Translations under genes and position numbers: made by a program | From: Cordylochernes scorpioides | Taxonomy: Eukaryota > Arthropoda > Arachnida > Pseudoscorpiones > Chernetidae | Length of the DNA stretch: 64,000 nt | Reading direction: 5' to 3' | Assembly (NCBI GenBank): GCA_030710605.1 | Contig: CP092865.1 | Location: 143,577,081-143,641,080 of the forward strand | In this document: piece after piece, positions 3,221-61,619 of the stretch | How the letters are laid out: each line of letters opens with the position of its first letter | How positions within the stretch are numbered: the stretch's first letter is position 1 | The notes under the pieces: model-generated | What the model was told of the DNA's origin: nothing | The model's database searches: none | The model's input: the letters and a program-made list of their open reading frames with translations, nothing else

Positions 3221-6200
3221 ACAATTAATAATATGGACTGAATTGTCACCAAATGTAAACTTACCCTTTTTAATAGACACGGGAGCATCAATAAACCTAC
3301 TTAACTTAGATATTTTAAGAACCATAGAAAATAGATTACCATATAAAATTATTATCCATCAGTACAGTTTAACTATAAATGCAATAGCCCACAATGTAAA
3401 TACCCTTGGATATATTTTTTTAAAACTTAAAATCGGTAACCTCACCCAAAAACTAAAATTTTTTATAGTAGAAGCTTCACTACCTTTTGGTATTTTATCT
3501 ATTAATACCCTTAAAATATTTAAATTAATTATAGATTTTAATAATCTCCAAATTTATCAAAATAATGATGCTCTCCCAACGAATGTCTATAAGTTCACCA
3601 AGTGCAAACAGGATTTATGTCCCACTCAACCGAGGGAAACTGATATGTTTACCACTTTCCCCTCGCACCAGTCCTGTTTACACGTGGCGGACTCTACTCC
3701 AATTATATGTTCACCCCCTATATCTCCTACCCATGATATTGAGATTTCTATACCTTCTAATGCGGCACCTCAGTTAGAACATTGTCCACACGAACTCCAC
3801 CGAATTCTATATGAATTCTCACAAGTGTTCTCTACTAATAAATACAATGTGCCCAAATTGAACATACCACCGGTAAAAATCAATACCACCACAGATAAAA
3901 TAATAGCATTACGCCCATATAGAGTGCCACTACACGACCAACAAGAAATACAAACCCAAATAGAACAAATGCTCCAATATGGAATCATTGCCCCGTCAGT
4001 TTCACCTTATGCCAGCCCCATAACGCTTGTTACCAAACGTGACCAAACGAAACGTTTCTGTATTGATTACAGAAAACTTAATGAAATCATCGCTCCAGAC
4101 GTACATCCTTTACCCTTAATAGAAACCATTCTTGACAAATTGTCAAAAGCCAAATATTACTCTTCTGTAGATATAGCATCCGCATATTGGCAAGTGGAAA
4201 TAGAACCTAACTCACGTAATCTACTAGCTTTCGTGACGTTAGATAGTCAGTACGAATTTTGTAGACTTCCTTACGGATTTAAAAATTCACCACAGATATA
4301 CCATCGTGCCATAAACCAGGTCATGCAAAAATATAAACTAAATTTTGTTACCCATTACTTCGACGATTTCATTATTTTTTCTGACACCCTAGAGGATCAT
4401 CTACAACACCTACAACAATTTCTAACAGTGTGTCAACACGAAAACATCAAACTTAATTATAATAAATGTTCATTTTTTAAAACAAAAATAGATTTCTTAG
4501 GATACACTGTTACCGCAGGTACTTATGCACCGCAGACGCGCAACCTTGATACTATAAATGCAATAAAACCACCTAACAATCAAAAAACACTACAATCATT
4601 TTTAGGAGCAGTAAACGTTTATAATAAGTTTATAGCAGATTATGCCCGCTTACGAGCACCTTTAAATAAACTACTTAAAAAGGATGTAAAATGGAATTGG
4701 AACACAGACTGTCAACAAGCTTTCACCACTCTCAAAGAGAGTTTAACCAGTAAACCAGTACTACACTTGTATCAAGTCGGTTTACCATGCCGCCTTTATT
4801 GCGACGCATCCACCCAAGGGATTGCCGGCATACTCAAACAGGTACACCCAGACGGACAAATACATCCTGTGCAATATTTTAGCCGCGCCCTTAGGGCACA
4901 TGAGAGAAACTACACCGTTTCCGAACTTGAGTGCCTCGCCATCGTCGAAAGTGTAGACAAATTCCGAATATACCTCACCGGTATAAAATTCACCATATAC
5001 ACAGACCATCAAGCTTTACAATGGCTTAAAACTATAAAAAATCCGTCAGGCCGACTATTTAGATGGAGCTTGAGACTATCTACCTATAATTACGAAATAC
5101 ACTACATCAAAGGCAGTCAACAGTATGAGGCAGATTTACTCTCAAGAAACCCCTTTGTAGGATTTATCAGTACTGATATTATAAAACAGCATCAACCAAC
5201 AGCATCCCCCTTCAACATTGATACAAACGGCTTACATACCATTACCCGAAAAGGTGTAACTAAAATAATAATTCCCGAAACCCTGCAACATACTCTCATG
5301 AACAAAGTTCACCAAGAATACAACCACCCAGGCATCTCTCAGATGACCCGCATAATTACTACCCAGTACTACTGGAAAGGTATCTCTAAATCTATAGAAA
5401 AATTTGTCAGGTCGTGTCACACCTGCCAAATCATTAAAAGGCCCAAAGGTAAACCCTATGGTGCCCTCGGACAAATTCCACCACCTCAACAACCATTCGA
5501 CTTAATCTCTATAGATACCATAGCTGGATTTTCGAAATATGGACACTCCAAGACCTATCTACACGTAATAGTGGATCATTTAACGCGATATGCTTGGACC
5601 TTTCCATCGAAGTCCACCAGTACCCTAACGTACATTCAAACCCTCAAGACTGTACTACAGCAAGGATCTCCAAAACGTCTGTTATCTGACAGAGCGCCCG
5701 CTTTTACCTCAGAAAAATTCCGTAAATTTCTAATAATGCATGGTATACAACCTCTACTAACTACCAGCAATAATCCACAAGCAAACGGTTTAATAGAACG
5801 CTTAAATGCGACCATTACAGGCAAGCTCAGACTAGCTTATCTAGAAAATCCGAAAGCTTCCTGGACTCAACTAGTTAAACGCGTCACTCAGACGTACAAT
5901 AACACACCCCATTCTGTCACAAGTTTTCCACCTACCTACTTAATGTTCAATGTTATCCCCCCAGATCTAAGAACTCATCTTAACCCATATCCCGAGATAA
6001 ATATAGCACGAGAGATAGCAAGCTCTCGTACTCAAAATAAACATAAAAAAGATAAAGAAACATTTGATAAGCAGCACAGAACACCACATTTCGAAGAGAA
6101 TGATCTTGTTTTGGTAAAAAATTACAGACATCCCGACACAGGTAAATTAGCACCATATTTTACTGGACCCCGCAAAATAATTGAAATAATCTCACCCAAT

Positions 6201-6470
6201 GTCGTTCGAATAGATCGCCCAAATCAGCCACTCAATAGAGATAGTGACACCATACATGTCAATAAATTAAAATATTACACAGAGGATGTGTTGTACATAA
6301 CACCTCCACAGCCCCGATTCGTTCAACACCCACAGCGATTGCCTCAAGATGTATATTTCATTGAATTCAATCATTTGACTCCAGATATCTTTGAAACACA
6401 ATTATTCCGAATTATACCGCCTACAAGCTCACAGCCTTTTTTACATTTAAATCCCAGTATTTTCAATTAG
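3195..6470 (+). CDS. pol: Pol polyprotein of Gypsy-A (protease, RT, RNase H, integrase)
   Basis: An uninterrupted pol that copies element RNA into DNA and integrates it. It has no obvious ATG at its start, so it is probably made by +1 frameshifting from gag. The residue numbers here count from 3243. The aspartic protease motif LIDTGAS is at 10-16. Reverse transcriptase runs over about 240-440 with LPYGF and the catalytic YFDD at 372-375. RNase H follows (LYCDASTQG, then TDHQALQWL). The integrase has an HHCC zinc finger (His690; CHTC from 725) and catalytic Asp758, Asp816 and Glu852, giving the DD35E spacing. A C-terminal module contains LAPYFTGPRKI. The order RT-RNase H-integrase places it in Ty3/gypsy (Metaviridae). 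All catalytic residues I checked are present. Confidence 0.92.
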   Translation, partial: ENLKLIFVEQLIIWTELSPNVNLPFLIDTGASINLLNLDILRTIENRLPYKIIIHQYSLTINAIAHNVNTLGYIFLKLKIGNLTQKLKFFIVEASLPFGILSINTLKIFKLIIDFNNLQIYQNNDALPTNVYKFTKCKQDLCPTQPRETDMFTTFPSHQSCLHVADSTPIICSPPISPTHDIEISIPSNAAPQLEHCPHELHRILYEFSQVFSTNKYNVPKLNIPPVKINTTTDKIIALRPYRVPLHDQQEIQTQIEQMLQYGIIAPSVSPYASPITLVTKRDQTKRFCIDYRKLNEIIAPDVHPLPLIETILDKLSKAKYYSSVDIASAYWQVEIEPNSRNLLAFVTLDSQYEFCRLPYGFKNSPQIYHRAINQVMQKYKLNFVTHYFDDFIIFSDTLEDHLQHLQQFLTVCQHENIKLNYNKCSFFKTKIDFLGYTVTAGTYAPQTRNLDTINAIKPPNNQKTLQSFLGAVNVYNKFIADYARLRAPLNKLLKKDVKWNWNTDCQQAFTTLKESLTSKPVLHLYQVGLPCRLYCDASTQGIAGILKQVHPDGQIHPVQYFSRALRAHERNYTVSELECLAIVESVDKFRIYLTGIKFTIYTDHQALQWLKTIKNPSGRLFRWSLRLSTYNYEIHYIKGSQQYEADLLSRNPFVGFISTDIIKQHQPTASPFNIDTNGLHTITRKGVTKIIIPETLQHTLMNKVHQEYNHPGISQMTRIITTQYYWKGISKSIEKFVRSCHTCQIIKRPKGKPYGALGQIPPPQQPFDLISIDTIAGFSKYGHSKTYLHVIVDHLTRYAWTFPSKSTSTLTYIQTLKTVLQQGSPKRLLSDRAPAFTSEKFRKFLIMHGIQPLLTTSNNPQANGLIERLNATITGKLRLAYLENPKASWTQLVKRVTQTYNNTPHSVTSFPPTYLMFNVIPPDLRTHLNPYPEINIAREIASSRTQNKHKKDKETFDKQHRTPHFEENDLVLVKNYRHPDTGKLAPYFTGPRKIIEIISPNVVRIDRPNQPLNRDSDTIHVNKLKYYTEDVLYITPPQPRFVQHPQRLPQDVYFIEFNHLTPDIFETQLFRIIPPTSSQPFLHLNPSIFN

Positions 6471-8812
6471 GTCAGGAAACAAACTGCCAGAGTGGAGGCA
6501 GAGGAATTTTCTTCCAGCCAGCAGAATGACTCATCGCACCGCCAGCAAAAACAAGCAACCCAGCTGAAATGGACACCGGTTGCAGCGGCGTCAGGTTAAC
6601 ATGACACCTCCAATTGCAGTAGGCCTGTATCTTTGGCCCAGCAGAATGCTAGATTTTAGTGTCCAAATAACCTACCAGATTAAAACGGATAGGAAAGTTA
6701 TATAAAATTCCTTTTATAGCAAATCTTATTTTATAAGGTTGTCGATCCTTTAAATGACATCATATGAGACGCCATATTATACCATCGTAAAAAGACGATT
6801 AAATCCACAAACTGGCGCCCATCGCCACGACAATGTTCCAATCTTCAACACTCTTCACTGTCAATCATACAATTATATGACTTTTGGGTACGTTTTTAAT
6901 ACGAACAAACACAACATTACCGGCTCATTCGTTAGGAATAAAAAAGAATTTAACCTCTCATTTCTCCATAGGTAACGCAATGTTACATGGAAAAAAGATC
7001 TGTTAAATTAATAGTTTAAATGATTTTTTCCCAAGCGTAACAAGCCGGCGTTTGGGTAGGCTCACCTAAAAATTTTGCAGACCAAACTGCATAAAACGCT
7101 CTGCAATCTTTTTAGCGCCTAAGACATGCACTATACACTTCATGTATCCAAAGTCCCCATCTTCCACTACACTACATCATTTTTAGGGATCAAGATCGCT
7201 CCCCGTCTGGTCTCACATAATATAATCAGGAAGATCTGGCAAAGACCAACTTCTCAGACCGGACCAAAGCGACATTGGGCCACATTGCCTCCCCATAGGT
7301 CAAACTAAAGACACCAATAATCTTGGACCTACACCTAGACATTGTGTGAATATGTTCCTTTCTTTTTTTTTTTCAGGAACGAATATTTTTTGTTTTCTTT
7401 TAACTTTTCTTCAAAAGAGACATTTTTTGCTCCATTTGTTACTACTTAACATTTATATAATCATTAATAACCTTTAATTATATTATATTTTTTTGTATAA
7501 AATCTTGAATAATTATTTTTATTTTTTTTTACTTTTCAATTATAATCAAATTTTTATTCCAACATTATTTTAACAACTTTATTGTAACAATTTTATTCTT
7601 CATGATATTATTTTAGTATGGCAAAACATTTAATTCTTTCAATAATCATTTTTAATTCATTATTATATCTTTTATATATTACTAATTCTAATTATTATAT
7701 CTTTTATATTTTGCTAATTCATTATTATGTCTTTTGTATATTACATGTTTGATTTTTAGAAATATAGTAGAAAAATTCTTCCTGGAGTAAACTTATACGA
7801 TAATAACAAGGCGAAGGAAGACGAGTTATTATCGTATATGTTTGATTTTATCCCCTTATACTGTTGTTATCCGCAATCATATTTCTATCTTTTTATTCAC
7901 TATATTTTTGTTTAAATAACTTTATTATATGACAATGTTTATCATCAACTATCGGGCATCTACAACAATCGTTTTCAACAATCATATTCTTTAACTAATT
8001 CCCTATGCTTTCTCACTACCTATTTCAGCCATTGCTAGAAACGACAGCACTGCTTGACAATTTTTCTTTTGATTTCGTAATTCAACAAACTCTTTGAAAA
8101 CACCGTTCCCCAGAAGTACAAGTCTCGACTTTTGGTCTGAACACGTTTCAAAAGTTTATTTCAATCATCCGCAGAGCACATCACCAACGCATGCACAAAG
8201 CGTTCACTTTTTTCCAACTTTCAATTTTTTTTCAGCTCTAGCGGACCACAATCAACCTTTGATTTCAAGTCAGGTCAGACCACCTACTGTCGCTACAACA
8301 ATTCTACATATCGCATGGCTCTACCACCCCTTTCAAGCATATTAATTCTTTTCTTCAACATCTTTTCAACCAATAACCTTACAATTGTGACAAAGCACTG
8401 TAACCTTATACAGGATCACAGGTGAAACATTGCCTAGGAAGACGCACAAGTCTATATCCTCGCTTTGCACCTGGATCTCAGTATTTGATTGTCTGTGCAA
8501 CACTTACAATTGCATATTCTTCAACCCCTAACCCTTTCCAACGCCCGCCAACAATCTCTTAGAACATCATCATTATTTTTTAGCAAACAAAGGTTTTATC
8601 TACAGTTCTCTTTTATAATGAATATCATAACTTTTTAATTAAACATAAGTTTTATTTTTATAATTTTCAGATATAGCCAAATAAACATCTTGTTATAGCC
8701 CTTTACCCTCACAGTTTTAATTAATTAAAAGAAATTTTAATTACTTACCTGTGTTAGAGAGGCTTTACCCGCTTAAACCCGGATAAACCCTTTCACTCCC
8801 GGGGCCCATCTA
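6471..8812 (+). other. Non-coding 3' tail of Gypsy-A
   Basis: About 2.3 kb between pol and the 3' LTR. I see only short ORFs (6754-6975, 7126-7308, 8094-8345) without signal peptide, membrane segment or Env-like features. Much of 7320-8650 is pyrimidine- and T-rich. A short inverted repeat occurs near 7790-7835 (ACGATAATAAC ... TTATTATCGT). No clear polypurine tract precedes the 3' LTR: the bases before 8813 are GGGGCCCATCTA. This may be a decayed env region or a captured segment. Confidence 0.6.
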
Positions 8813-9593
8813 TGATAATTTAAACCAATAACCCTATATTATGTAATACGTATAACAAAATTGTCATGTTGTATATAGAACTAATTATAAACTATAACTA
8901 ATTATATGCATAATTGACGTGTGTCCTTGTATCCCCATATGTAATGTACTGAGGATGAATAAATAAAAATATATAATAGATTAAAAGCTGAGTTAAGAGC
9001 CAGAGAGAGATTTACAAAGTAACTTCTAAAGATAGATTGGACCCCGACAGACTGTCGCCAGTGTCCGGTGTCCCTCGACACGTGCATGACCCAATTCTCT
9101 TTGTCAGAGCTGTCGTATAAATAAGACCGGCCTTAGCAACAGCAGTCAGTTCAGTTCCAGTGAGTTCCCCATCAGCGTGTCGCCGGTTGTCACCAACTCA
9201 TCGACCATGTAAAACAGTAAGAAACCTTCTCGATCTCCATCTTTGCTTTTGGCTCAACTTTTTATCTATTCAAGGAACTTTCTTTCAACTGTGTCGCTTC
9301 GTTTTGTGTGTGTGGACATCCCCAGCTTTTCCACTCTGCCTCGACCACGACTGCCTGTACTTTGTGAGAACGGTTAAAGGTCCTACAAGGTGCAGAGAGG
9401 CACTGGAAAACTCTCCACCCCTGACTGTTCCTCGCGGTTACTACAGGTTTGACCCTCGGTTGCCACAACTTATAGCGAGAGTCGACGAGGTTCTACAACA
9501 GGCTTACCAAACCCCAACGCATTATTACAGAGAGTCGACAGGACCCCAACACATTATTACAGATAGTCGACAGGATCTCAACACATTATTATA
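8813..9593 (+). repeat. 3' LTR of Gypsy-A
   Basis: Essentially identical to 1363-2143. It ends in the same ACACATTATTATA, then passes into (AT)n, so the exact boundary (9593-9605) is ambiguous. It contains two of the three PBS-like modules (near 9525-9545 and 9560-9575). Confidence 0.85.
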
Positions 9594-24699: not shown

Positions 24700-25560
24700 G
24701 CAGATATATACTCGAGAGACAGCTTCCTTGGCCACTTGCCACTCGGGAGACAGCTTCCTTGGCCACTTGTTACTTGGGAGACAACTTCCCTGGCCACTTG
24801 TTACTTGGGAGAAAGCTTCCTTGGCCTCTTGCTACTCGGGAGACAGCTTCCTTGGCCACTTGCTACTCGGGAGACAGCTTCCTTGACCACTTGCTACTCG
24901 GGAGACAGCTTCCTTGGCCACTTGCTACTCGGGAGACAGCTTCCTTGGGCACTTGCTACTCGGGAGACAGCTTCCTTGGCCACTTGCTACTCGGGAGACA
25001 GCTTCCTTGGCCACTTGCTACTCGGGAGACAGCTTCCTAGGCCACTTGCTACTCGGGAGACAGCTTCCTTGGCCACTTGCTACTCGGGATACAGCTTCTT
25101 TGGCCACTTGTTACTTGGGAGACAACTTCCCTGGCCACTTGCTACTCGGGAGACAGCTTCCCTGGCCACTTGCTACTCGGGAGACAGCTTCCTTGGCCAC
25201 CTGCTACTCGGGAGACAACTTCCCTGGCCACTTGCTACTCGGGAGACAGCTTCCCTGGCCACTTGCTACTCGGGCGACAGCTTCCTTGGCCACCTGCTAC
25301 TCGGGAGACAGCTTCCTTGACCACTTGCTACTCAGGCGACAGCTTCCTTGGCCACCTGCTACTCGGGAGACAGCTTCCTTGGCCACTTGCTACTCGGGCG
25401 ACAGCTTCCTTGGCCACCTGCTACTCGGGAGACAACTTCCCTGGCCACTTGCTACTCGGGAGACAGCTTCCCTGGCCACTTGCTACTCGGGCGACAGCTT
25501 CCTTGGCCACCTGCTACTCGGGAGACAGCTTCCTTGGCCACTTGTTACTTGGGAGACAGC
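24700..25560 (+). repeat. 31-bp minisatellite, about 28 copies
   Basis: The unit is TTGGCCACTTGCTACTCGGG followed by AGACAGCTTCC. Variants carry GTTACTTGGGAG, CAACTTCCC or GGGCGACAG. Higher-order alternation is visible after 25200. Because 31 is not a multiple of three and the unit contains no stop in any forward frame, all three plus frames stay open and translate into the same 31-residue repeat (GHLLLGRQLPWPLATRETAS and its shifts). This is expected of the repeat and does not demonstrate a protein. Confidence 0.95.
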
Positions 25561-25631
25561 TCTACAAGGGCTCCCTACCACCAGCTACCACACTCTCTCT
25601 CTCTTCCTCTGGCTGCGCCTTTCTTTTTATA

Positions 25632-29078: not shown

Positions 29079-29861
29079 ATGGACTCAAAACCTTTTAAAT
29101 GTGAATATTGTTACTATGAAACAACAATAAAGCGCAATCTGACAAGGCATATGTACACACATACTGGTGAAAAGCCTTTTAAATGTGAATATTGTGATTA
29201 TGAATCAGCAGAAAAACAAAATCTTACTATGCATTTGTACACTCACACTGGTGAAAAACCTTTTAAATGTGACCAATGTAATTATAGATCTACACGTAAA
29301 ATATCTCTAAAAGAGCATAAACTTAATTTTCACACAGATAAAAAGTCTTTTAAATGTGATTATTGTGACTATGAAGCAGGAATCAAGCGTCTTCTTACAA
29401 ATCATTTGAATACACATCATAGTGAAAAAGATTATAAATGTGAATATTGTAATTATGAAACATCTTTAAAACGTAATCTTGCTAATCATTTGTACATACA
29501 TACTGGTGAAAGACCTTTTAAATGTGAATATTGTGACTATGAAACAACAGTAAAGCGCAATCTTACCAGGCATATGTACACACATACTGGTGAAAAACCT
29601 TTTAAATGTGAATATTGTGACTATGAAACAGCACGAAAGCAGAGTCTTACTCATCATTTATTCACACACACTGGTAAAAAACCTTTTAAATGTGATTATT
29701 GTGACTATGAAACAGCATTCAAGCAGAGCTTTACTCACCACTTAAACACACACACTGGGGAAAAACCTTTTAAATGTAAATATTGTGATTATAGGGCAAT
29801 AACAAAACAGCGTATCAACAAACACATATGTAAACCAATTGTAATTGATAAGAATTTTTAA
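29079..29861 (+). CDS. C2H2 zinc-finger protein 1 (nine fingers)
   Basis: A 260-residue protein made almost entirely of zinc fingers: eight C2H2 fingers of the form FKCxYCDYET(x)KRxLTRHxxTH joined by TGEKP-type linkers, then a ninth C-terminal finger ending HIC. It is presumably a nuclear DNA-binding regulator, but has no visible effector domain (no KRAB, BTB or ZAD). Fingers 3-4 and 4-5 have longer or altered linkers (HTDKKS, HHSEKD). The ATG at 29079 begins only three residues before the first finger. A 3' splice site upstream suggests a spliced 5' UTR. It is paralogous to 49079-49861 with the same length and finger order, differing at DNA-contact positions of several fingers (fingers 1 to 4). 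Confidence 0.88.
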   Translation: MDSKPFKCEYCYYETTIKRNLTRHMYTHTGEKPFKCEYCDYESAEKQNLTMHLYTHTGEKPFKCDQCNYRSTRKISLKEHKLNFHTDKKSFKCDYCDYEAGIKRLLTNHLNTHHSEKDYKCEYCNYETSLKRNLANHLYIHTGERPFKCEYCDYETTVKRNLTRHMYTHTGEKPFKCEYCDYETARKQSLTHHLFTHTGKKPFKCDYCDYETAFKQSFTHHLNTHTGEKPFKCKYCDYRAITKQRINKHICKPIVIDKNF

Positions 29862-43825: not shown

Positions 43826-44629
43826 ATGAATAATTTACCACCGCCTTCTGCGTTTACAATAGATCAAAATGATCCTAATAAATGGCCAAAATGGCGTAAA
43901 AAAATCGAAAAATACATCATAGCAAGTGATCTTGATTCAAAAACTATACAACAACAAAGGGCTATTCTATTACACATTATTGGCGATTCAGCGCTTGAAA
44001 TATATAATACATTTGGTTTTGAAGAAAATGCGCAAAGCCCTACTATCAAAGATATTCTAGATAAATATGATCAATATTTTAGACCATTTAAAAACACCAT
44101 ATATAAAAGATACATTTTCTTTACTTGTGAACAAAAGCTAAATCAAACTTTTGACGATTTTGTCACAGAAATTAAAAGTAAGGCTGAAGACTGTGAATTC
44201 GAAAATATTAAAGATTCTCTTATTAGAGACAGAATTGTTCTGGGTTGTAGGGATACAACACTTAGAGAAAAATATTTACAGAACCCCGATTTGACACTGT
44301 CATTGGCTATTAATCAAGGTCAGGGGGCTGAGGCATCGCAAAAACAATTAAGAAACATTGAAAAAGATTCAATTGATGCTATAAGGAAAAACTTTAATGA
44401 AAAATATAAACCTACCACCTCTTTGAAGAATAGCTACACAAGTAACCCAGTTAGAGCCAATTTTAATAAATCGATCAGGTGCTCAAAATGTAACATGGCT
44501 CATGACTTTGGAAAGTGCCCTGCATATGGAAAAGAATGTTACAAGTGCAGACGGCCAAACCACTTTTCAAATTGCTGCAAAATAGAGCAGTTAGGTGTAT
44601 ACAAGAAATTGAGAGGAAGAAAAAGATAA
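43826..44629 (+). CDS. gag: Gag protein of Gypsy-B
   Basis: 267 residues, complete from the ATG at 43826 to a TAA at 44627. An N-terminal Gag helical region contains the motif DPNKWPKWRKKIEKY, then YFRPFKNTIYKRY, FDDFVTEIKSKAEDC and RDRIVLGCRDTTLREKYL. The C-terminus is basic with two zinc-binding motifs: CSKCNMAHDFGKC and CYKCRRPNHFSNCC (CX2CX4HX4C). It would package element RNA. Pol starts in the +1 frame; the two frames overlap over 44613-44629 around GGA AGA AAA AGA TAA, a possible shift region. Confidence 0.88.
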   Translation: MNNLPPPSAFTIDQNDPNKWPKWRKKIEKYIIASDLDSKTIQQQRAILLHIIGDSALEIYNTFGFEENAQSPTIKDILDKYDQYFRPFKNTIYKRYIFFTCEQKLNQTFDDFVTEIKSKAEDCEFENIKDSLIRDRIVLGCRDTTLREKYLQNPDLTLSLAINQGQGAEASQKQLRNIEKDSIDAIRKNFNEKYKPTTSLKNSYTSNPVRANFNKSIRCSKCNMAHDFGKCPAYGKECYKCRRPNHFSNCCKIEQLGVYKKLRGRKR

Positions 44630-47526
44630 CCTACTGATTATAGACTCAATCATGGTCGGCCAAGTGTTAAGGAAACCGTGGAAGGAACTAATTTACATAC
44701 AAGGACATCCTGTTGATATTAAACTTGATACAGGAGCAGATGTAAATATTCTGCCGGAAAGGCTAATTAAAGAATGGCCTAATATGCCATTGCTGGAAAC
44801 AGCAGATTGCAAAATATATACTTATACAGGGCAACAAATCCCAGTAGTAGGAAAATGCCAGCTAGATTGTAAGACGAAATACGCTTGCAGAAAAGTTACA
44901 TTTTTAATTGTTAACAACTCAGCAGTTCCTATACTAGGTCTGGATGAGTGTGAGAAATTAAATTTAGTAAAAAGAGTGGAAACAATAAGTGATATCAGCG
45001 TTACTCTTACAGGACTCTTGGATGAATATAAAGATGTTTTCAAAGGAAATGGCCATTTGAGTTATATGTATGACATTACAATATCGGACATGGCGGAGCC
45101 TAAAATAAGTCCAGCCAGAAGACTACCCAGAGCATTGCTTCAACCAGTAAAGGAAGAACTGTTTAAAATGGAAGAAGACGGGATTATCGAAAAAATAGAA
45201 GAACCGACGGTATGGGCGCACCCAATGGTAGTGGTAAAGAAACCATCGGGCAAATATCGGATATGCATTGACCCAAGGGAACTGAATAAATGGGTCTTGA
45301 GGGAGCATTACACCTTACCTGCACCTGAAAACATTTTAGCAGAAATACCTAAGGCTAAATTTTATTCTGTATTAGATGCGAAATCTGCATTTTGGCAAGT
45401 GCCGCTAAGTGAAAATACATCTAAATATTTGGTGATGAGTACACCATTTGGGCGTTATCGATTCTTGAGGCTACCATTTGGAATTTCCAGTGCACCTGAA
45501 ATTTTTCAAAAAATTATGCACAAGATTTTTTGTGATATCCCTAATGTGGTCTGCTATATAGATGATCTTCTAATATGGGGTAATTCAATTGTGAAGATCA
45601 TAACTCTACTCTAAAAAAGGTTTTGGATTTGGCCAGAGAAAGTAGACTGAAGCTTACATTAAATAAACTTCAAATGGCCACAGGGGTAGTAAAATTTTTA
45701 GGTCATACCATCTCACAGGAAAGAATTTTACCTGATCAAGATAAAGTTAGAGCCATTCAAAATATGCAAATACCTAAAAATAAGCAAGAATTGCAAAGGA
45801 TACTTGGGACTGTAACTTATCTAGCCAAATTCATACTGGACTTATCATCAAATACTTCTAATATGAGAAACCTGCTTAAAAAGGATATAATCTTGAATTG
45901 GAATATTGCAGCAGATCAAGAGCTGAATTTTATCAAAACTCTCCTAACTAGTCCACCAGTATTGAGACACTTTGATCCTAATGAACCACTAGAACTTTTT
46001 GCTGATGCAAGCAAAGATGGGTTGGGTGCTATACTAATGCAAAAAGAAAAAGCTTTATCTAATGCATCTGCATCTCTCACTTCTCCGCAAAAACATTACT
46101 CCCAAATTGAAAAAGAATTATTGGCTCTATATTTTGGATGTAAAAGGATCCATTATTTCCTTTATGGTAGAAAATTTACTGCATATACAGATCATAAACC
46201 CTTGGTTTCTTTATTGAAGAAAAACTTTGATCAAATGTCACCTAGACTCCAAAGGTTGTCATTGTATTTATTAAATTATCAATTTGAATTGAAGTTCATC
46301 CCAGGAAAGAGTATGATACCTGCTGATACCCTTTCCAGACATTTCTTGCCCCAGGAACAAATGGAAGATAAAGAATTAGACTTATGTACTCAAACGTTTG
46401 TTTTAAATGTTGAGATCAAAGACCAGAGATTAACGAGACTACAGGAGGATACTTTAAATGATAAAGAATGCTGTTTGCTGAAGCAATATATTTTAACAGG
46501 TTGGCCCTTACACAAAAAGAACTTGCCTTCCAACCTCAAACCTTATTGGGAATTCAAAGAAGAACTTCATGAATGGCAAAACTTGATCTGCAGAGGTAAT
46601 AAACTTCTAATACCAAAAACCCAAAGAAGCGATATGTTAAAGATACTCCATGCTTCACATCAAGGTATAAACAATACAATTGCATTAGCCAAAAGATCCA
46701 TTTACTGGCCTGGAATGAATAAAGAAATTGAAGAATTAATCAATAACTGTTCAGTTTGTCAACAAACATCAAGAGCAAATCTTAAAGAACCTATGCTTCC
46801 ACACCAAGTACCTGATTATCCATGGCAAAAGGTAGGGATCGACATTTTTCAAATAGAAAGCTCAAAAGATCTCTTAATAGTGGACTACTTCAGCAAATAC
46901 CCAGAAATATATCAACTCCAAGATATGACAACAGACACCATAATAAGGAGATTAAAGAGAACTTTCTCGAACTTTGGAATTCCTGAAACTTTGGTGAGTG
47001 ATAATGGGCCTCCATTCTTTTCAAAGGAGTTCCAGAACTTTACTAGAACTTGGAATATAGTCCATGTAACATCTAGTCCTTACCATCCACAGAGTAACGG
47101 GATGGTAGAACGAACAGCTCAAACTTTAAAGAAATTGATAAAGAGATGTGGGGAAGAAAGTACAGACCCCTACTTAGCTCTTCTCAACTTACGAAACACA
47201 CCACACAATAATTTGCCATCACCTGCGCAAATTCTGATGTCAAGGAATTTAAGGTCTATAATACCCTCGAAGACATCCCAGTTCGTGCCCTCCATGATTA
47301 ACAATGAGGCGATCCAGAAACAGCTAGTTGATAATCAATTTAAAATGAAAAACTATTACGATAGACACTAGACCGGCAGACCCATTATCTATCAAGGATA
47401 GAGTTTGGTTTCGAAAAGATAAAAGATGGATCCCAGGCCAGCTGGAAAACCAAGCCAATGAACCCCGATCCTTCTACGTGAAAGATCAAGAAGGAAATGA
47501 ATATAGAAGAAATAGTATTCACATCC
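44613..47526 (+). pseudogene. pol: Pol of Gypsy-B, interrupted by frameshifts
   Basis: Protease (KLDTGADVNIL, Asp at about residue 26 from the ATG at 44652) and RT up to the catalytic YIDD (45555-45566) lie in one frame, which stops at 45612-45614 after a one-base loss near 45590-45600. RNase H (LFADASKDGLGA, TDHKPLVSLL) and integrase (HASHQG...CSVCQQ; GIDIF, SDNGPPFFSKEF and NGMVER for the catalytic triad) follow in a second frame from 45600 to a TAG at 47369-47371. The C-terminal module (DRVWFRKDKRWIPGQL) is in a third position, 47373-47526. Sequence is otherwise well preserved, so the lesions are recent. Confidence 0.88.
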
Positions 47527-49078: not shown

Positions 49079-49861
49079 ATGGATACAAAACCTTTTAAAT
49101 GTGAATATTGTTACTATGAAACAGCAGTAAAATGCAATCTTGCAACCCATATGTACAGACATACTGGTGAAAAACCTTTTAAATGTGACTTTTGTGACTA
49201 TGGAGCAATACAAAAAATATCGCTTACTAATCATTTGTTGACACACACTGGTGAAAAACCTTTCAAATGTGACCAATGTGATTATGGATCTATATACAAA
49301 ATATCTCTAAAAGAACATAAACTTACTATTCACACAGATAAAAAGCCTTTTAAATGTCATTATTGTGACTATGAAGCAGGACTCAAACGTCATCTTACAA
49401 ATCATTTGAACACACATCATGGTGAACAACATTTTAAATGTCAATATTGTAATTTTGAAACGACTTTAAAATGTAATCTTACTAATCATTTGTACATACA
49501 TACTGGTGGGAAACCTTTTAAATGTAAATATTGTGCCTTTCAAACAACAGCAAAGCGCAATCTTATAAGACATTTGTTCACACATACTGGTGAAAAACCT
49601 TTCAAATGTGAATTTTGTGACTATAGAACAGCAGTAAAGCACAGTCTGACTAACCATTTGTACACACACACTGGTAAAAAACCCTTTAAATGTGATTATT
49701 GTGACTTTGAAACAGCAGCAAAGCAGAACCTTATTAATCATTTGTACCGCCACACTGGTGAAAAACCTTTTAAATGTGAACATTGTAATTATAGAGCAGT
49801 AACAAAAAATAGAATTTCCAAACACATATGTAAACCAATTGTAATTAATGAAGATTCTTAA
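49079..49861 (+). CDS. C2H2 zinc-finger protein 2 (nine fingers)
   Basis: 260 residues, same length and architecture as gene 1 at 29079: eight C2H2 fingers and a final finger ending HIC. Linkers are HTGEKP, with altered ones at HTDKKP and HHGEQH between fingers 3-5, exactly as in the paralogue. Several fingers differ at helix positions that contact DNA (finger 1 VKCNLAT versus IKRNLTR; finger 2 IQKISLTN versus AEKQNLTM). This suggests a different target while the zinc ligands stay intact. No effector domain is visible. It is probably a nuclear DNA-binding protein. Confidence 0.88.
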   Translation: MDTKPFKCEYCYYETAVKCNLATHMYRHTGEKPFKCDFCDYGAIQKISLTNHLLTHTGEKPFKCDQCDYGSIYKISLKEHKLTIHTDKKPFKCHYCDYEAGLKRHLTNHLNTHHGEQHFKCQYCNFETTLKCNLTNHLYIHTGGKPFKCKYCAFQTTAKRNLIRHLFTHTGEKPFKCEFCDYRTAVKHSLTNHLYTHTGKKPFKCDYCDFETAAKQNLINHLYRHTGEKPFKCEHCNYRAVTKNRISKHICKPIVINEDS

Positions 49862-56155: not shown

Positions 56156-56160
56156 GTAAC

Positions 56161-56492
56161 TGTTCGTGGCTTGAATGTTCAGTAAAGGATACTAAGAAGC
56201 ACTTTGCCACTTGTCTTGAATTGTTTTATTGTCTTTGGTTTTAGAGTTATGAGTAGCTACCACATGAATTTAGAATACATGAAATTGACTTAGATTTTGA
56301 TACTAGTGGTAGAGAGAGAGAGAAAACAAAAAGCTATATTAATTAACCAAACTAGAAATTTGCATACATACTGATTCCTTTAAAAATTTACATATTGAAG
56401 ATTTATATTGTACAATTGAATTTAGAATATTTTGGCTTAATTTTCATATATAAAATTGAATTTAAGGAAATTATTAACTATAGGATCCAACA
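56161..56492 (-). repeat. 3' LTR of the Pao element
   Basis: Matches 61284-61614; the few differences seen include TTCCTTTAAAAATT versus TTGCTTTAAAATT. A GA-rich microsatellite is included. On the minus strand the purine tract GCCGGGGGAGTA (56493-56504) precedes it. Confidence 0.92.
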
Positions 56493-56620
56493 TACTCCCC
56501 CGGCTGGGAAGAGATGACCAGAAAATAAAAAATAAAAAAAATAAATAAAAATAAAAAAGAGTTCCAATAGTATAGATGCTGGACTAATTGATTCCGACTA
56601 TGTAGCTAAGATTACAATTC

Positions 56621-58129
56621 TCATTGTTTGAAAGGTAATGGAATCAGCTTCCATCTTTGAGTATCCGATTGAGGTGAATCTTGGATGAGATTTTCAGATT
56701 CGTTGGCCAGTTCTCTTTCGGGAACTGCTGGATTATCAGACTCTGCGGCTGCTAAGTCGGATTCAATAGGATCTTCCCAAGGTTTTGATTCAGCCTTTAT
56801 GCATGAGCCTTGTTCGGTCGATTCCTCTAAATGTTCTTTGGAGAGTTGTCGACTTTCTGCCGCCTTCTCAAAATCTTCCAGATTGACTGCCTTTTCTAAA
56901 GCTTCGGGTCTTAAGACTTCTTTCTTCAAGATTTCTGGCCATTCTATATATGCCGATGAACTGTAATTTTCATCGTCGTCTTCAGATTCCTTGACGTCTT
57001 CTAAGCATAGAGAATCGATGGGTTTCCAGCGGGATAATTTAGCCTTTTCACCGCTCTGTAGATAATCCTTTGTTGATGTATCCACAATTTCAACAGGTAC
57101 AACTTTCTCTTTGCTTGACGATTCCTTAGCTTCTGTATAAACATTGATTATGCCACTGGTAGCCTCTTTAGGTCGATTAAGATCAGCTTCAACCACATTG
57201 AGGTGAGCTGGGTCATCATGGCACAGTTCCTTCTTATCCAGAGCTTCTACACTGACCACTGGTTCTTTCGAATATTTGCCTTCCGATTTATCAATAACCG
57301 AAACTTCGGAGATTTCAATCTTTGGAGTCCCGATATCTTTGTTAGACTCTTCGTCTTCAATGACAAAAGTGGTTTCTAAAATTGAAGAATCTTCTTGATT
57401 CTCATCAATAGCCTCAGGAATGTCGGCATTCTCAGTTAAGAGATTTTTGATAAGTGATTCCTGGCGTGGGGGTTTCGGTTGTAAGAGAGGGAAATTTTGA
57501 TTTTCATTTAAATAGGAATACTTGAGTCTACCTCCAACTCTTAGAAGTCTTTGAGTGTCTAAAAAGGGATTTAGAGAAGTTAGCTTGTTGGACAGAGGTA
57601 GTTGCTTGTTTGACTTCAGTAATTTTATTTCCGTGCAGAATTCAACTTGCTGGATTGATTTGACTAAGACTTGAATTGCCTTTGTTAATTCTCTTGTTGT
57701 CAAAGGTCCTTTCTGACGAATTGGATCAAAGAGGAGGCAATTGTAGTAGAATCTCCAACACCAAGCTGTTATTCGGATCAATTTGGTCATTGTGGAATAC
57801 CTTTCAATGAATTCTAGATTTAACATAGTTTCTGAATTTTGAATTAAGGTTGTTTGATCCAACACTTGACCTTCACCGACTTCTTCTTGAATGATATTGA
57901 GATTTACTTGGGTTGGTGAAGAAGGAATATATCGAACATTATTTTCTTGAAGCCAAATAGGATCCCGCCACCAAATTCTATGATTGACCAAGTCTTGAGG
58001 CATGATTCCTCTTGATGCGCAATCAGCTGGATTATCTTGACTGGATACATGGAACCAATCAGTGATTTGAGTCAAATTTTGAATTGACGACACTCTGTTC
58101 GAAACAAAGGCCTTTCCATCTGCTGGCAT
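56621..58129 (-). CDS. Pao-derived ORF: RNase H end, integrase start, acidic replacement segment
   Basis: 502 residues. Residues 7-60 continue the Pao RNase H and its linker (AFVSNRVSSIQNLTQITDWF, NPADCASRGIMPQDL, WWRDPIWL). Residues 110-230 are the Pao region before integrase, ending LLRVGGRLKYSYLNENQNFP and QESLIKNLL. There the integrase HHCC finger and DDE core should begin. Instead residues about 231-502 are a continuous, strongly acidic, low-complexity stretch (ESEDDDENYSSSAYIEWPE, repeated E/K/S clusters) ending RWKLIPLPFKQ. It has no stop over about 270 codons. No integrase catalytic residue remains. It lies in a different frame from the upstream ORF; the frames cross in RNase H at about 58100-58125. 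Confidence 0.75.
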   Translation of the reverse strand: MPADGKAFVSNRVSSIQNLTQITDWFHVSSQDNPADCASRGIMPQDLVNHRIWWRDPIWLQENNVRYIPSSPTQVNLNIIQEEVGEGQVLDQTTLIQNSETMLNLEFIERYSTMTKLIRITAWCWRFYYNCLLFDPIRQKGPLTTRELTKAIQVLVKSIQQVEFCTEIKLLKSNKQLPLSNKLTSLNPFLDTQRLLRVGGRLKYSYLNENQNFPLLQPKPPRQESLIKNLLTENADIPEAIDENQEDSSILETTFVIEDEESNKDIGTPKIEISEVSVIDKSEGKYSKEPVVSVEALDKKELCHDDPAHLNVVEADLNRPKEATSGIINVYTEAKESSSKEKVVPVEIVDTSTKDYLQSGEKAKLSRWKPIDSLCLEDVKESEDDDENYSSSAYIEWPEILKKEVLRPEALEKAVNLEDFEKAAESRQLSKEHLEESTEQGSCIKAESKPWEDPIESDLAAAESDNPAVPERELANESENLIQDSPQSDTQRWKLIPLPFKQ

Positions 58130-60635
58130 CTGATCTTATCCAATCTATGCAGATTTGTGAATCAGTCCACAAAAAGGTTTTGTCAGGTTGAAAAGGAAAT
58201 GATTCAAGAATGACTTGATTCATTTGAGCCAAAAGCAATGCTGCACTTAGTTCAAGTCTTGGAATTGTAATGGTCTTTAATGGTGCAACCTTAGTTTTTG
58301 AGGTTATCAGATTGATTTTGATCTTTTGAATTTTGAATCTAGTTTTCAAGTAAAAAACTGCTGAATAAGCATTAAGGGATGCATCACAAAATCCATGTAG
58401 TTGTAATTCTTCTATTTCAGAAGATGAACTGTTCAGGTATCTTGGTATTTTGATTTCCTTTAGGCACGATAGTTGAGTTTGGAATTTATTCCAATTTGAC
58501 TTTATATCTGATTCAATTGGTTCATCCCATGAAGTTCTCTCAGCAGGAAGTTGACGTTTTCGCCTATAATAGGGTGGTGGCTTTATCTTAGGAATAATCG
58601 AAGTTTCTTTCTTAGATGAGGGTGGTTCACTTGACTGAGAAGCGAGAGGTTGTTCTGGAGTGGATGGTTGACTTGATTCAGAAGGAAGTAATTGGTTTTG
58701 TTTAGAAGTAATTTGTGGAGTTAACTTAGAGATACGTGACTTTTTAGATTTACTTGGAATTTCTTCAGATTTACTTGGATTATCTTCGGATCTACTTAGA
58801 TTTTCTTCAGACTTACTTGAATTATCTTCAGATTCTTCTATAGAGGAGCATGAAAAATTGGAGTTCTGAGACATCTGTGGCTCTGTATAATCCCCAGAAC
58901 ATCGGCAACTCTCTGAACCTCTGGTGGGAGATGTAGGGGACTTGGGCCCACTTTGGGCCTTGAAATCTTCAACAGAAGCCGATGAGAGAGTGTAACTCTG
59001 CTCTGGGCTCATCGGGTAGGATGGCAGATTATCAACTCGGTTCTGGCTCTCTTCCGAGTGGGGGGAAATAACATCCTGGTTAGAAAATGATAAGTGGGAG
59101 TTGGAATCGGGTGGCTGAACCACTTTGGTCCATGTGGGGCTTTCCTCCTTCTTCTGAAGAACAGGAGTGGTCTCCTGCAGATGAGCAGTGTTACTGGGAT
59201 ACAAGGCCTGGGGATCTTCCACTGGTGGCCATGTTCCAGACTGAGTAGTGGATGTGCTCTGTAGGCTCAAAGTTAGAGACGGTGACCCTTGAACAGAGTC
59301 TGGTAGACTTGGAGAGGTCTGAATGGACTCTTGTAGACTTGGAGATGGGGCATTCTTTATACCCAACTGGGCCTTAGAAATTGGGACATCTTCAAGTTCC
59401 CAGAATTTTCTTATGCTGGAATCAAGTTCAGTGGTACAGTGATTGATTACCGAAGTATTTGACTTAATATTTGAATGGATTCTCCCATAAACAAGCCAAC
59501 CTAACTTGGTATTAAGTGCTATAGGATGGTACTTTAAATCTGTTTTCTGACCTAGAATGATTTCTACAAAGGTATCTGCACCCAAAATTAGGTCTATGGG
59601 CTTGGTGACATAGAATTCTGGGTCTGCCAAGAGCAAATTTTCTAAATGAGGAAAGTCTGCTGACTGAATTTGGAAGTTTGGAAGGTCAGCAGTTACCCTC
59701 CCAACCACAAATGCTCTGGCAGAAAATAATTGATCATTATGATGTGGGGTGAACTCTATTTCAACCTGCGATGTTGTCCTGTTGACAACAATGTCACCTA
59801 CACCTTTTAGTGTATAAGAATTTTTCCTTTTTTCAAGTCCCAACTTGTGGCAACATTGTTCTGAAATTAGGCTTATTTGGGACCCATTGTCCACTAATGC
59901 TCTACATAGCACAAATGAGCCATCCTTCGCCTTGACTTTAATAAGGGCTGTTGACAGTAGAATATTTGTTTCCGTTTCCAAAGGCATCGCATTACAGATG
60001 GTATTTGTTGAAATCAACATCTCTTGAGAGGTTGTTGGTTGTGGAATAGATGGTTCAGAGTTGTATTCATGCAGAAGAGTATGATGGTTCTGCTTGCAGT
60101 TTTTACATCTTGATGTGATGAGACATTTGGATATCTCATGATTTGCTCTAAGGCAATTTTGACAAAGTTTATGTTTTTTAACTAATTCCCATTTTTTAGG
60201 CAAGGGAAGATTTATGAATCTATGGCAGTCATTTAGTTTATGAATTTGATGACATAAAATACAATTTTGACCTTTGTTGACATAAAGGCCGTGAGCCATC
60301 ATATTTTTGCTAGAGGTTTTTTGTTCCTGGAACAAAGGAATTCTCATACCTTGCAGGCTTCTAGCATGTTTTTCTAAAAAATTCACAAATTTTTCAAATG
60401 TTGGATATTCTTCATTTTGAAGGGTTAATTCCCATTCTTTCCTGAGGGCTTCACCAATTCTTTTTTCAAAAAAATTGATCAGGATTAGATCTGTTAATGT
60501 GTTTTTCTCAAGTCCTAGCACTGAGAGATTTCTAATGCCTTCATTGCAAACATCAAGGATTTCATAGAGAGAACCAGCCGAAATAGATTTTAATGGCCTT
60601 ATGGAGAATATTTTGTTGATTTGTGAAAAAGCCAA
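58059..60635 (-). CDS. Pao Gag-protease-RNase H ORF with RT replaced by a Ser/Pro-rich segment
   Basis: 858 residues counted from 60635, which begins just after an in-frame TAA. Residues 1-115 are the C-terminal half of Pao Gag. Residues 125-190 hold three zinc knuckle-like motifs (CILCHQIHKLNDC, CQNCLRANHEISKC, CKNCKQNHH). Residues 240-390 are the DUF1758-type protease (ALVDNGSQISLIS, DLILGADTF, LGWLVYGRI). Residues 400-422 match the segment before RT (IRKFWELEDVPISKAQ). Residues about 424-698 are unlike any Pao RT: Ser/Pro/Glu-rich, with tandem SPSLxxSxQ units (430-460) and SKSEE units (607-630). From 700 the Pao sequence returns (SWDEPIESDIKSNW, LHGFCDASLNAYSAVFYL, SKTKVAPLKT, WTDSQICIDWI). 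The RT palm and its YxDD are absent. Confidence 0.82.
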   Translation of the reverse strand: MAFSQINKIFSIRPLKSISAGSLYEILDVCNEGIRNLSVLGLEKNTLTDLILINFFEKRIGEALRKEWELTLQNEEYPTFEKFVNFLEKHARSLQGMRIPLFQEQKTSSKNMMAHGLYVNKGQNCILCHQIHKLNDCHRFINLPLPKKWELVKKHKLCQNCLRANHEISKCLITSRCKNCKQNHHTLLHEYNSEPSIPQPTTSQEMLISTNTICNAMPLETETNILLSTALIKVKAKDGSFVLCRALVDNGSQISLISEQCCHKLGLEKRKNSYTLKGVGDIVVNRTTSQVEIEFTPHHNDQLFSARAFVVGRVTADLPNFQIQSADFPHLENLLLADPEFYVTKPIDLILGADTFVEIILGQKTDLKYHPIALNTKLGWLVYGRIHSNIKSNTSVINHCTTELDSSIRKFWELEDVPISKAQLGIKNAPSPSLQESIQTSPSLPDSVQGSPSLTLSLQSTSTTQSGTWPPVEDPQALYPSNTAHLQETTPVLQKKEESPTWTKVVQPPDSNSHLSFSNQDVISPHSEESQNRVDNLPSYPMSPEQSYTLSSASVEDFKAQSGPKSPTSPTRGSESCRCSGDYTEPQMSQNSNFSCSSIEESEDNSSKSEENLSRSEDNPSKSEEIPSKSKKSRISKLTPQITSKQNQLLPSESSQPSTPEQPLASQSSEPPSSKKETSIIPKIKPPPYYRRKRQLPAERTSWDEPIESDIKSNWNKFQTQLSCLKEIKIPRYLNSSSSEIEELQLHGFCDASLNAYSAVFYLKTRFKIQKIKINLITSKTKVAPLKTITIPRLELSAALLLAQMNQVILESFPFQPDKTFLWTDSQICIDWIRSDASRWKGLCFEQSVVNSKFDSNH

Positions 60636-60935
60636 TTATCTTCTGTTATTAAATCTATTGCATAAGGTATCCCATGCTTGCTGGTAGTTTTTGTCAGAAA
60701 TGGGAAAACCCCTAATCAACTTTTCCGCAGGACCCTTAACAGATGCATTTAGATATTGAAATTTTTGTATTTCAGTTAGTGTTTGATTTGAATTAATGGT
60801 GGAGTTAAATATTTCTCTAAAACTAAGCCAATTGGCTGAATCACCATTGAAAATGGGTAAATTTATCTTAGGTAAATTAACATTGGATTCGGGCAGTTGT
60901 TTATCACTATGAGTATTTTCTTTGGTTTCAATCAA
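60636..60935 (-). pseudogene. gag: Pao Gag, middle segment
   Basis: 99 codons including LPKINLPIFNGDSANWLSFR and SVKGPAEKLIRGFPISDKNY, the conserved DUF1759-type Gag region of Pao/BEL elements. It ends NNRR then TAA (60636-60638), and the 858-codon ORF continues in the same frame, so a single nonsense codon or a readthrough site divides Gag. Confidence 0.8.
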
Positions 60936-61207
60936 AGATAAAGCTCTTCAATAGACACCAACATATTAAAAATATCCTTCTTGGCCTTTGAATAATCGTC
61001 ATATTGTGTATCATCTAACTCTGATTCTAATAATGTGTTGATAACTTGATTTAGGCTAATTTTCCTTTCCTTAACTTCTTGTTGGAATAGCTTTAATCCA
61101 TGTATGTTTTTAGATTCTACAATAGCTTTTTTCTCTGATTCCAGATCCTTTATTTCCTGAATAATAAAGTTGAATTTGTGCCGAATTTTAACTTCTGATT
61201 TGGGCAT
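60932..61207 (-). pseudogene. gag: Pao Gag, N-terminal segment
   Basis: 91 codons, Lys/Glu-rich and probably coiled-coil, starting MPKSEVKIRHKF. It is the expected N-terminus of Pao Gag. It overlaps the next segment by four bases (60932-60935) in another frame, so a frameshift mutation near 60940 or a recoding event separates them. Confidence 0.65.
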
Positions 61208-61261
61208 GACTTTATTTTAAGAATTTTAAGTTTTCAAATGGCTTACCTTAATTTTTTAAAG

Positions 61262-61280
61262 TATCCGGCTCGAGGGACCA
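61262..61280 (-). other. Pao primer-binding site, tRNA-Tyr-like
   Basis: The minus strand reads TGGTCCCTCGAGCCGGATA, three bases inside the 5' LTR. From memory it is the complement of the 3' end of animal tRNA-Tyr with about one mismatch. Position and TGG start are right for a PBS. Confidence 0.75.
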
Positions 61281-61283
61281 TAA

Positions 61284-61614
61284 TGTTCGTGGCTTGAATG
61301 TTCAGTAAAGGATACTAAGAAGCACTTTGCCACTTGTCTTGAATTGTTTTATTGTCTTTGGTTTTAGAGTTATGAGTAGCTACCACATGAATTTAGAATA
61401 CATGAAATTGACTTAGATTTTGATACTAGTGGTAGAGAGAGAGAGAAAACAAAAAGCTATATTAATTAACCAAACTAGAAATTTGCATACATACTGATTG
61501 CTTTAAAATTTACATATTGAAGATTTATATTGTACAATTGAATTTAGAATATTTTGGCTTAATTTTCATATATAAAATTGAATTTAAGGAAATTATTAAC
61601 TATAGGATCCAACA
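61284..61614 (-). repeat. 5' LTR of the Pao element
   Basis: 331 bp; pairs with 56161-56492. It lies next to GTAAC at 61615-61619. Confidence 0.92.
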
Positions 61615-61619
61615 GTAAC

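What the first reader, a model, noticed from the sequence alone, without database searches (positions are those of the whole stretch)
56161..61614. A Pao/BEL element that has lost its RT and integrase cores and carries two ~270-codon open segments in exactly those places
Seen: intact LTRs, GTAAC duplication, PBS, PPT, Gag, zinc knuckles, protease and RNase H. The protein passes directly from the pre-RT motif (FWELEDVPISKAQ) into a Ser/Pro-rich stretch of ~275 residues, then returns to Pao RNase H sequence. A second switch after QESLIKNLL replaces integrase with an acidic ~272-residue stretch. Both replacements are open in frame, which chance DNA of this AT content would rarely be. Known: Pao/BEL order is gag-protease-RT-RNase H-integrase. 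Inference: a non-autonomous chimera that acquired two host or foreign coding segments, or a lineage that swapped enzymes for accessory proteins while relying on another Pao for RT and integrase.
Basis: partly seen in the sequence, partly recalled or inferred. Interest (0 to 1): 0.88.

Follow-up and report, generated by a model that had tools for sequence, protein, structure and literature searches.

The report
Retrotransposon with swapped-out enzyme genes
In what is almost surely a pseudoscorpion genome, a family of Pao-type retrotransposons has had its reverse transcriptase and integrase replaced in frame by foreign protein segments, and relatives that still have the missing enzymes sit in the same genome, so it probably spreads as a parasite of its own relatives.

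Summary
The element (56161-61614, minus strand) has 330/332-identical LTRs, a perfect 5-bp duplication, Gag, protease and RNase H, but no detectable RT or integrase; both replacement stretches are open. The segments match only Cordylochernes scorpioides proteins. The chimera is a multi-copy family: of 26 close relatives found with a segment-free query, 18 carry a cassette in place of RT, 7 have RT or its start, 1 has neither. Two (P0029, P0030) are complete Gag-PR-RT-RH-IN proteins, 90-99% like the window in shared pieces: plausible helpers. There are three replacement pieces, not two; intermediate forms exist. Segment 2 is a fragment of a longer frame (ORF X) found next to parts of another Pao family, so exchange between elements is its likeliest source; no donor of 1a/1b was found. 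The segments look disordered and vary two to three times more than Gag/PR/RNase H in the same 9 copies, so passengers are likelier than selected proteins. This copy is broken in gag and RNase H. No other copy's DNA could be fetched: dN/dS and LTR sharing are untested.

The parts
61284..61614 (-). 5' LTR, TG...CA
   Evidence: 330/332 identity to the 3' LTR
56161..56492 (-). 3' LTR, TG...CA
61615..61619 (-). target-site duplication GTTAC, 5' side
   Evidence: flanks printed
56156..56160 (-). target-site duplication GTTAC, 3' side
   Evidence: flanks printed
61261..61280 (-). primer-binding-site-like stretch, 3 bases beyond the 5' LTR; its likeness to the 3' end of a tRNA-Tyr is recalled, not tested
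   Evidence: sequence
56493..56505 (-). purine tract next to the 3' LTR
   Evidence: sequence
60932..61207 (-). N-terminal gag frame; frame break near its end
   Evidence: 92% and 97% match to P0004 and P0009
60639..60935 (-). gag, DUF1759; followed by the in-frame stop 60636-60638
   Evidence: Pfam E 2.4e-21; 99% to P0029
59349..60635 (-). rest of gag with zinc knuckles (by eye), aspartyl protease, pre-RT motif
   Evidence: 97% to P0029 and 90% with 30 gap positions to P0030 over 429 residues
58831..59348 (-). segment 1a: Ser/Pro-rich, replacement of the RT start
   Evidence: class III
58536..58830 (-). segment 1b: Ser/Lys/Glu repeats (21-bp unit), then PPPYYRRKRQLPAE; replacement of the RT core
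   Evidence: shared by classes II and III
57482..58535 (-). RNase H and following linker, frame break near 58100
   Evidence: Peptidase_A17 E 5.6e-37; its two pieces 98% to P0030, 94-96% to P0029
56654..57481 (-). segment 2: acidic, replacement of integrase; matches part of ORF X
56621..56653 (-). remnant of the integrase C-terminal end (WKLI joined to PLPFKQ, stop)
   Evidence: compare the ends of P0029, P0030 and P0011

Best explanation
It is one copy of a recently active non-autonomous Pao/BEL retrotransposon family of C. scorpioides. The family arose from a complete Pao by successive exchanges, probably during reverse transcription: segment 2 replaced the integrase, segment 1b the RT core, segment 1a the remaining RT start, and a deletion between short repeats removed the integrase C-terminus. 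It keeps LTRs, a PBS-like stretch, a purine tract and Gag, PR and RNase H, and is probably packaged, copied and integrated with RT and integrase supplied in trans by complete relatives such as P0029/P0030. Shown: anatomy, shared junctions, class series, helper candidates, one donor trace. Inferred: template switching as the cause, order of steps, trans-mobilisation, mostly passenger status of the segments.
For: The segments recur in C. scorpioides proteins on many contigs: segment 2 at up to 99% over its whole length; segment 1 at 98-99% over parts, 60-70% over its whole length because it is rearranged between copies. With a query free of the segments, 26 close relatives are listed: 11 class II and 7 class III carry a cassette instead of RT, 7 have RT or its start, and P0047 has RT gone without a cassette; of the 19 of these 26 that reach the RNase H end motif, 17 enter segment 2 and 2 integrase. 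P0029 and P0030 have GAG-PR-RT-RH-IN-DUF5641. Intermediates: P0041 has RT plus segment 2; class II keeps the RT start; P0011 and P0018 keep all or part of DUF5641 after segment 2. Short shared stretches at the switches. P0024 and P0025 continue beyond segment 2 on either side. LTRs 99.4% identical. P0005 has the complete family's protease type with the class II cassette, a sign of exchange.
Against: Copies other than the window are predicted proteins, whose introns and ends may be wrong; only the window shows the junctions in DNA. No LTR of a helper was seen. P0041 may be a recombinant rather than an ancestor. Keeping the switches in frame is more than pure passengers need. With the disrupted model P0033 included, the difference in singleton changes between segments and core vanishes (p 0.45).
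Confidence: 0.82

Rival explanations
1. The segments are selected accessory parts: the chimeric polyprotein (Gag-PR-segment-RNase H-segment) does something for the element, for instance favours its own packaging, interferes with the complete copies, or counters host silencing.
For: The switches are in frame and the segments open in the window; five predicted copies run from gag to the end of segment 2, P0032, P0034, P0037, P0038 and P0045; ORF X follows the pre-RT region of a second Pao family in P0024.
Against: Both segments are predicted disordered (mean pLDDT 33.3 and 48.1, shallow alignments); no Pfam or solved-structure match; in the same 9 copies protein differences per site are 0.032 (segment 2) and 0.038 (1b) against 0.012-0.016 for GAG, PR, RH. 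Gene models favour open frames.
Confidence: 0.15
2. The segments come straight from host genes, as in maize Bs1, and the forms next to other Pao families are later spread.
For: Higher G+C in segment 1 (0.45) and segment 2 (0.41) than in gag (0.33), RNase H (0.36) and PR (0.39); no source for 1a and 1b among the 141 proteins held.
Against: The 13 and 16 relatives are all C. scorpioides proteins and most also carry Pao or other transposon sequence; no plain host gene was seen. The searches were limited by protein length.
Confidence: 0.35
3. An assembly join or collapse made the chimera.
For: None found.
Against: The same junctions in many proteins on 16 contigs (contigs); flanking duplication and matching LTRs.
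Confidence: 0.01
4. The family is no longer mobile and some copies have been taken over as host genes.
For: Some predicted proteins fuse the element to host-like genes (P0032 named CCT6A, P0035 with E2F domains).
Against: Such fusions are common in gene prediction over transposons (general knowledge); LTR identity points to recent movement.
Confidence: 0.03

Closest known systems
Complete Pao/BEL (Belpaoviridae) elements, here P0029/P0030 of the same genome
   Same: Gag, protease and RNase H 90-99% identical to the window piece by piece, the low value with 30 gap positions from the P0030 model; same polyprotein end in P0029
   Different: the window copy lacks the RT core, integrase and nearly all of DUF5641 and has three inserted pieces
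Maize Bs1 (passages in PMC13317346 and PMC7264820)
   Same: LTR element that took up three separate coding segments
   Different: Bs1 segments come from named host genes; here the one donor trace is a frame beside another Pao, the family is multi-copy, and complete relatives are seen
Cattle ERVK[2-1-LTR] D-type elements (abstract and section list of PMC10924933)
   Same: non-autonomous majority (85%) with a complete minority in the same genome, proposed parasite-of-parasite
   Different: the abstract describes D-type elements as lacking functional genes; here Gag, PR and RNase H frames remain and the enzymes are replaced by foreign frames
Bdelloid rotifer LTR elements with shared extra ORFs (abstract of PMC5408684)
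   Same: the same extra frame in different retroelement families
   Different: there ORF3 is added to gag and pol; here frames replace RT and integrase
BARE-2 and Veju (passage in PMC13317346)
   Same: chimeras ascribed to abnormal template switching
   Different: there an LTR exchange or unknown DNA, not in-frame enzyme replacement

Membership tests
Pao/BEL LTR retrotransposon | two LTRs TG...CA with short target duplication | tested here: met
Pao/BEL LTR retrotransposon | DUF1759 gag and Peptidase_A17 (RNase H region) | tested here: met
Pao/BEL LTR retrotransposon | aspartyl protease | tested here: inconclusive
   Pfam match below cut-off, but the region is about 97% identical to the complete relative P0029
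Pao/BEL LTR retrotransposon | own RT of Pao type | tested here: not met
   so it is a derivative, placed by gag, PR and RNase H
Pao/BEL LTR retrotransposon | integrase and DUF5641 | tested here: not met
Non-autonomous LTR element with helper | lacks mobility enzymes yet recent and multi-copy | tested here: met
Non-autonomous LTR element with helper | complete relative in the same genome | tested here: met
   P0029, P0030 as gene models
Non-autonomous LTR element with helper | helper shares LTR, PBS and PPT | not testable with these tools
   no DNA of other copies; the genome search could not be reached
Bs1-type host-gene transduction | segments traceable to host genes | tested here: inconclusive
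   no host gene found; length-limited search
TRIM / LARD | no coding capacity | tested here: not met
   long coding frames

The most novel reading that the evidence does not exclude
Pao elements of this pseudoscorpion pass around a pool of accessory frames (ORF X, 1a, 1b) that sit in the RT or integrase place of more than one family; the RT-less lineages are organised hyperparasites whose chimeric polyprotein, kept in frame through four or more exchanges, helps them outcompete the complete copies.
Probability: 0.15. Interest if true: 0.82.

Novelty: new variant of a known kind. Interest (0 to 1): 0.6.

Why it matters
Non-autonomous LTR elements usually just lose coding sequence (general knowledge). 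Here each enzyme region is replaced almost exactly and in frame, with intermediate forms and complete relatives still present in one genome. That gives a ladder of steps for how a retroelement turns into a parasite of its relatives, and a direct test (dN/dS by domain and class) of whether captured frames are passengers or tools.

Tried and rejected
Tried without result: the window's own genome (genome search 'own') could not be reached in 15 calls, so copy DNA, LTR sharing, dN/dS and true copy number could not be had. Viral contigs gave no confirmed relative of either segment (5 and 22 pattern matches, none confirmed). No solved structure (E up to 1) and no Pfam family matches either segment (a UVR match at E 0.065 is under its cut-off). 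Both segments fold with low confidence, so no fold search was made. P0027, with the downstream part of ORF X, has no Pfam family and only an E 0.78 structure match. ARAGORN found no tRNA in the window. blastn (E 1e-3) and tblastx (E 0.01) printed no match of the element to the rest of the window.

Considered and rejected: assembly artefact; segments as diverged RT or integrase (P0030 holds both enzymes, and none of the 141 proteins shows a segment aligning to them); two captures only (three pieces).

Results against my reading. The pairwise variability of RT (0.027, 3 proteins) and integrase (0.021, 2 proteins) is near that of segment 2 (0.029) when each domain's own set of copies is used. The comparison on 9 copies left out P0033 and P0035; with P0035 it stays (p 0.002), with P0033 too it vanishes (p 0.45) because the RNase H of that model is disrupted (78%). 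Ascertainment: two of three protein searches used the segments as queries, so '32 of 34' is enriched for them; the segment-free search gives 17 of 19.

Papers: searches showed no account of this family in their listings; two returned none, 26, 41 and 42 listed 20 of 45, 20 of 46 and 12 of 13, and 60 listed 12 of 9,394. This covers the held open-access library only, and judges titles and starts of abstracts.

Full report
What is there. On the minus strand, 56161-61614 is an LTR element with LTRs 330/332 identical and a GTTAC duplication on both sides. A PBS-like stretch lies at 61261-61280 and a purine tract before the 3' LTR. Pfam names DUF1759 and Peptidase_A17, an aspartyl protease below its cut-off, and no RT or integrase in the 7 pieces scanned. 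The frame runs from the pre-RT motif into a Ser/Pro-rich stretch, back into RNase H, then into an acidic stretch and a stop. Each stretch has no stop in its frame and 7-28 in each other frame, and 0 of 5000 simulated sequences were open. Outside the stretches this copy is broken in gag (frame break near 60935, stop at 60636-60638) and in RNase H (frame break near 58100); gene models of other copies pass these places without interruption, for instance P0004 and P0036.

Host and copies. Segment 1 finds 13 and segment 2 finds 16 proteins, all labelled Cordylochernes scorpioides. Segment 2 matches at up to 99% over its length; segment 1 at 98-99% over parts and at 70% and 60% over its whole length (P0001, P0002). 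The window is therefore almost surely from this pseudoscorpion (taxid 51811). A third search, with the protease and RT start of P0005 (a stretch without the segments), gave 201 hits, of which 120 were listed. What follows rests on the 141 proteins held from these searches. They are gene predictions, one per 90% cluster, and may carry false introns.

Classes. I cut 12 domain slices and matched them to the 141 proteins, then checked junctions by pattern. Class 0, complete: P0029 (X) and P0030 (chromosome 1 by label) with GAG, PR, RT, RH, IN and DUF5641; the models P0028, P0031, P0039 and P0040 end within or at the start of RT. Class I: P0041 has RT and RNase H but passes into segment 2. Class II: RT start kept, RT core replaced by 1b, RNase H, then segment 2 where the model reaches it: P0004, P0005, P0008, P0009, P0032-P0038 (11). 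Class III: 1a and 1b in place of RT: the window, P0001, P0002, P0042-P0046 (7 proteins). Of the 27 proteins with the pre-RT motif 18 carry a cassette, 7 RT or its start, P0047 has RT gone with no cassette, and P0017 is uninformative; 26 of the 27 (all but P0017) come from the segment-free search. Of 34 proteins with the RNase H end motif 32 enter segment 2 and 2 enter integrase; on the proteins alone it is 17 of 19. P0011 keeps nearly all and P0018 the first 38 of 96 residues of DUF5641 after segment 2; 21 of 141 end as the window does.

Likeness to the complete copies. Window pieces against P0029: gag piece 99%, gag/PR piece 96.7%, the two RNase H pieces 95.7% and 93.7%; against P0030: 98.6% (73 residues), 90.2% (30 gap positions from its gene model), 97.9% and 97.6%. 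RT-less proteins match the P0030 PR slice at 97-100% and its RH slice at 97-99% where they align over the whole slice, apart from P0033 (78%, disrupted model).

Junctions. Compared with P0030 the switches fall at short shared stretches: LG[T/I]KNA, LEK[R/G]LQ[A/E]NPS, TSWDEP, FPLL[L/Q]PK, QRWKLI, and KLI for the loss of DUF5641 (read by eye). This is protein, not DNA, and fits template switching but does not prove it.

Donors. P0024 and P0026 hold a diverged segment 2 (83% over 195 and 59% over 115 residues) behind a longer frame, ORF X, and P0025 and P0027 carry a shared continuation downstream. In P0024 ORF X follows the protease and pre-RT region of another Pao family (41% to a Pao inside P0028, about 30% to the window family), and the diverged segment 2 is followed by a piece of which 53-69 residues match Pao integrase at 48-67%. 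The start of P0026 looks by eye like the same pre-RT region in another frame; BLASTP did not show it. No donor of 1a or 1b was found. 1a is longer or arranged differently in some copies (P0002, P0043), and P0007 and P0010 have another piece upstream of its shared part.

Constraint. In the same 9 copies protein differences per site are GAG 0.0157, PR 0.0137, RH 0.0119, 1b 0.0378 and segment 2 0.0320. Singleton changes are 26 in 349 columns for the segments and 30 in 924 for the core, Fisher p 0.002. P0033 and P0035 had been left out: adding P0035 gives 33 in 372 against 40 in 924, p 0.002; adding P0033 as well gives 36 in 372 against 77 in 924, p 0.45, owing to its disrupted RNase H. Recombination with complete copies could also keep the core uniform. 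With each domain's own set of copies the values are GAG 0.023, PR 0.017, RH 0.016, 1b 0.050, segment 2 0.029, RT 0.027 (3 proteins) and IN 0.021 (2). Structure prediction gives mean pLDDT 33.3 for segment 2 and 48.1 for segment 1, from alignments of 12 and 11 rows.

History. At two protease columns the five proteins P0028-P0031 and P0039 read C and M, while 17 of 18 RT-less copies with letters there, the window included, read S and R; the exception is P0005, which has the class II cassette with the complete type. P0040 and P0041 have RT with the RT-less type. So exchange between the lineages has probably happened, and P0041 may be ancestor or recombinant.

How it works, best reading. Shown: cis parts kept, enzymes gone, complete relatives present. 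Inferred: RNA of RT-less copies is packaged and copied with RT and integrase from complete copies. Gag, PR and RNase H seem more conserved than the segments, which suggests that they are still used or are refreshed by recombination. The segments are probably tolerated passengers that leave the frame open; a selected role is possible.

Known relatives. Bs1 of maize took up three host segments (passages of PMC13317346, PMC7264820). Cattle ERVK D-type elements are a trans-complemented non-autonomous majority (abstract and section list of PMC10924933). Bdelloid LTR elements share extra frames between families (abstract of PMC5408684). What I saw of these texts, abstracts or passages only, does not describe in-frame replacement of both RT and integrase with intermediate forms.

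Noticed in passing
P0024, P0025, P0026, P0027 (C. scorpioides proteins): ORF X, a long frame; Pfam gave no family over it. In P0024 it follows the pre-RT region of a second Pao family. What it is remains open.
   Followed up: partly
window 2228-6470 with repeats at about 1358-2143 and 8808-9593: Gypsy-like element with open gag (330 aa) and pol (1075 aa) frames; a 786-bp stretch recurs downstream at 99.6%.
   Followed up: partly
window 29079-29861 and 49079-49861: Two 260-aa C2H2 zinc-finger frames whose starts are exactly 20,000 bp apart, about 80% identical over 1.3 kb including flanks: a dispersed duplicate.
   Followed up: partly
window 24709-25561: 31-bp tandem array, 27.5 copies, open in several frames.
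   Followed up: no
window 43826-47371: Second gypsy-like element with gag and pol frames.
   Followed up: no
P0007, P0010: Different upstream piece (repeats of VHSELSKSKG) before the shared part of segment 1a, perhaps a further cassette.
   Followed up: no
window 58746-58834: 21-bp repeat inside segment 1b; its number differs between copies (P0008, P0009, P0035).
   Followed up: partly
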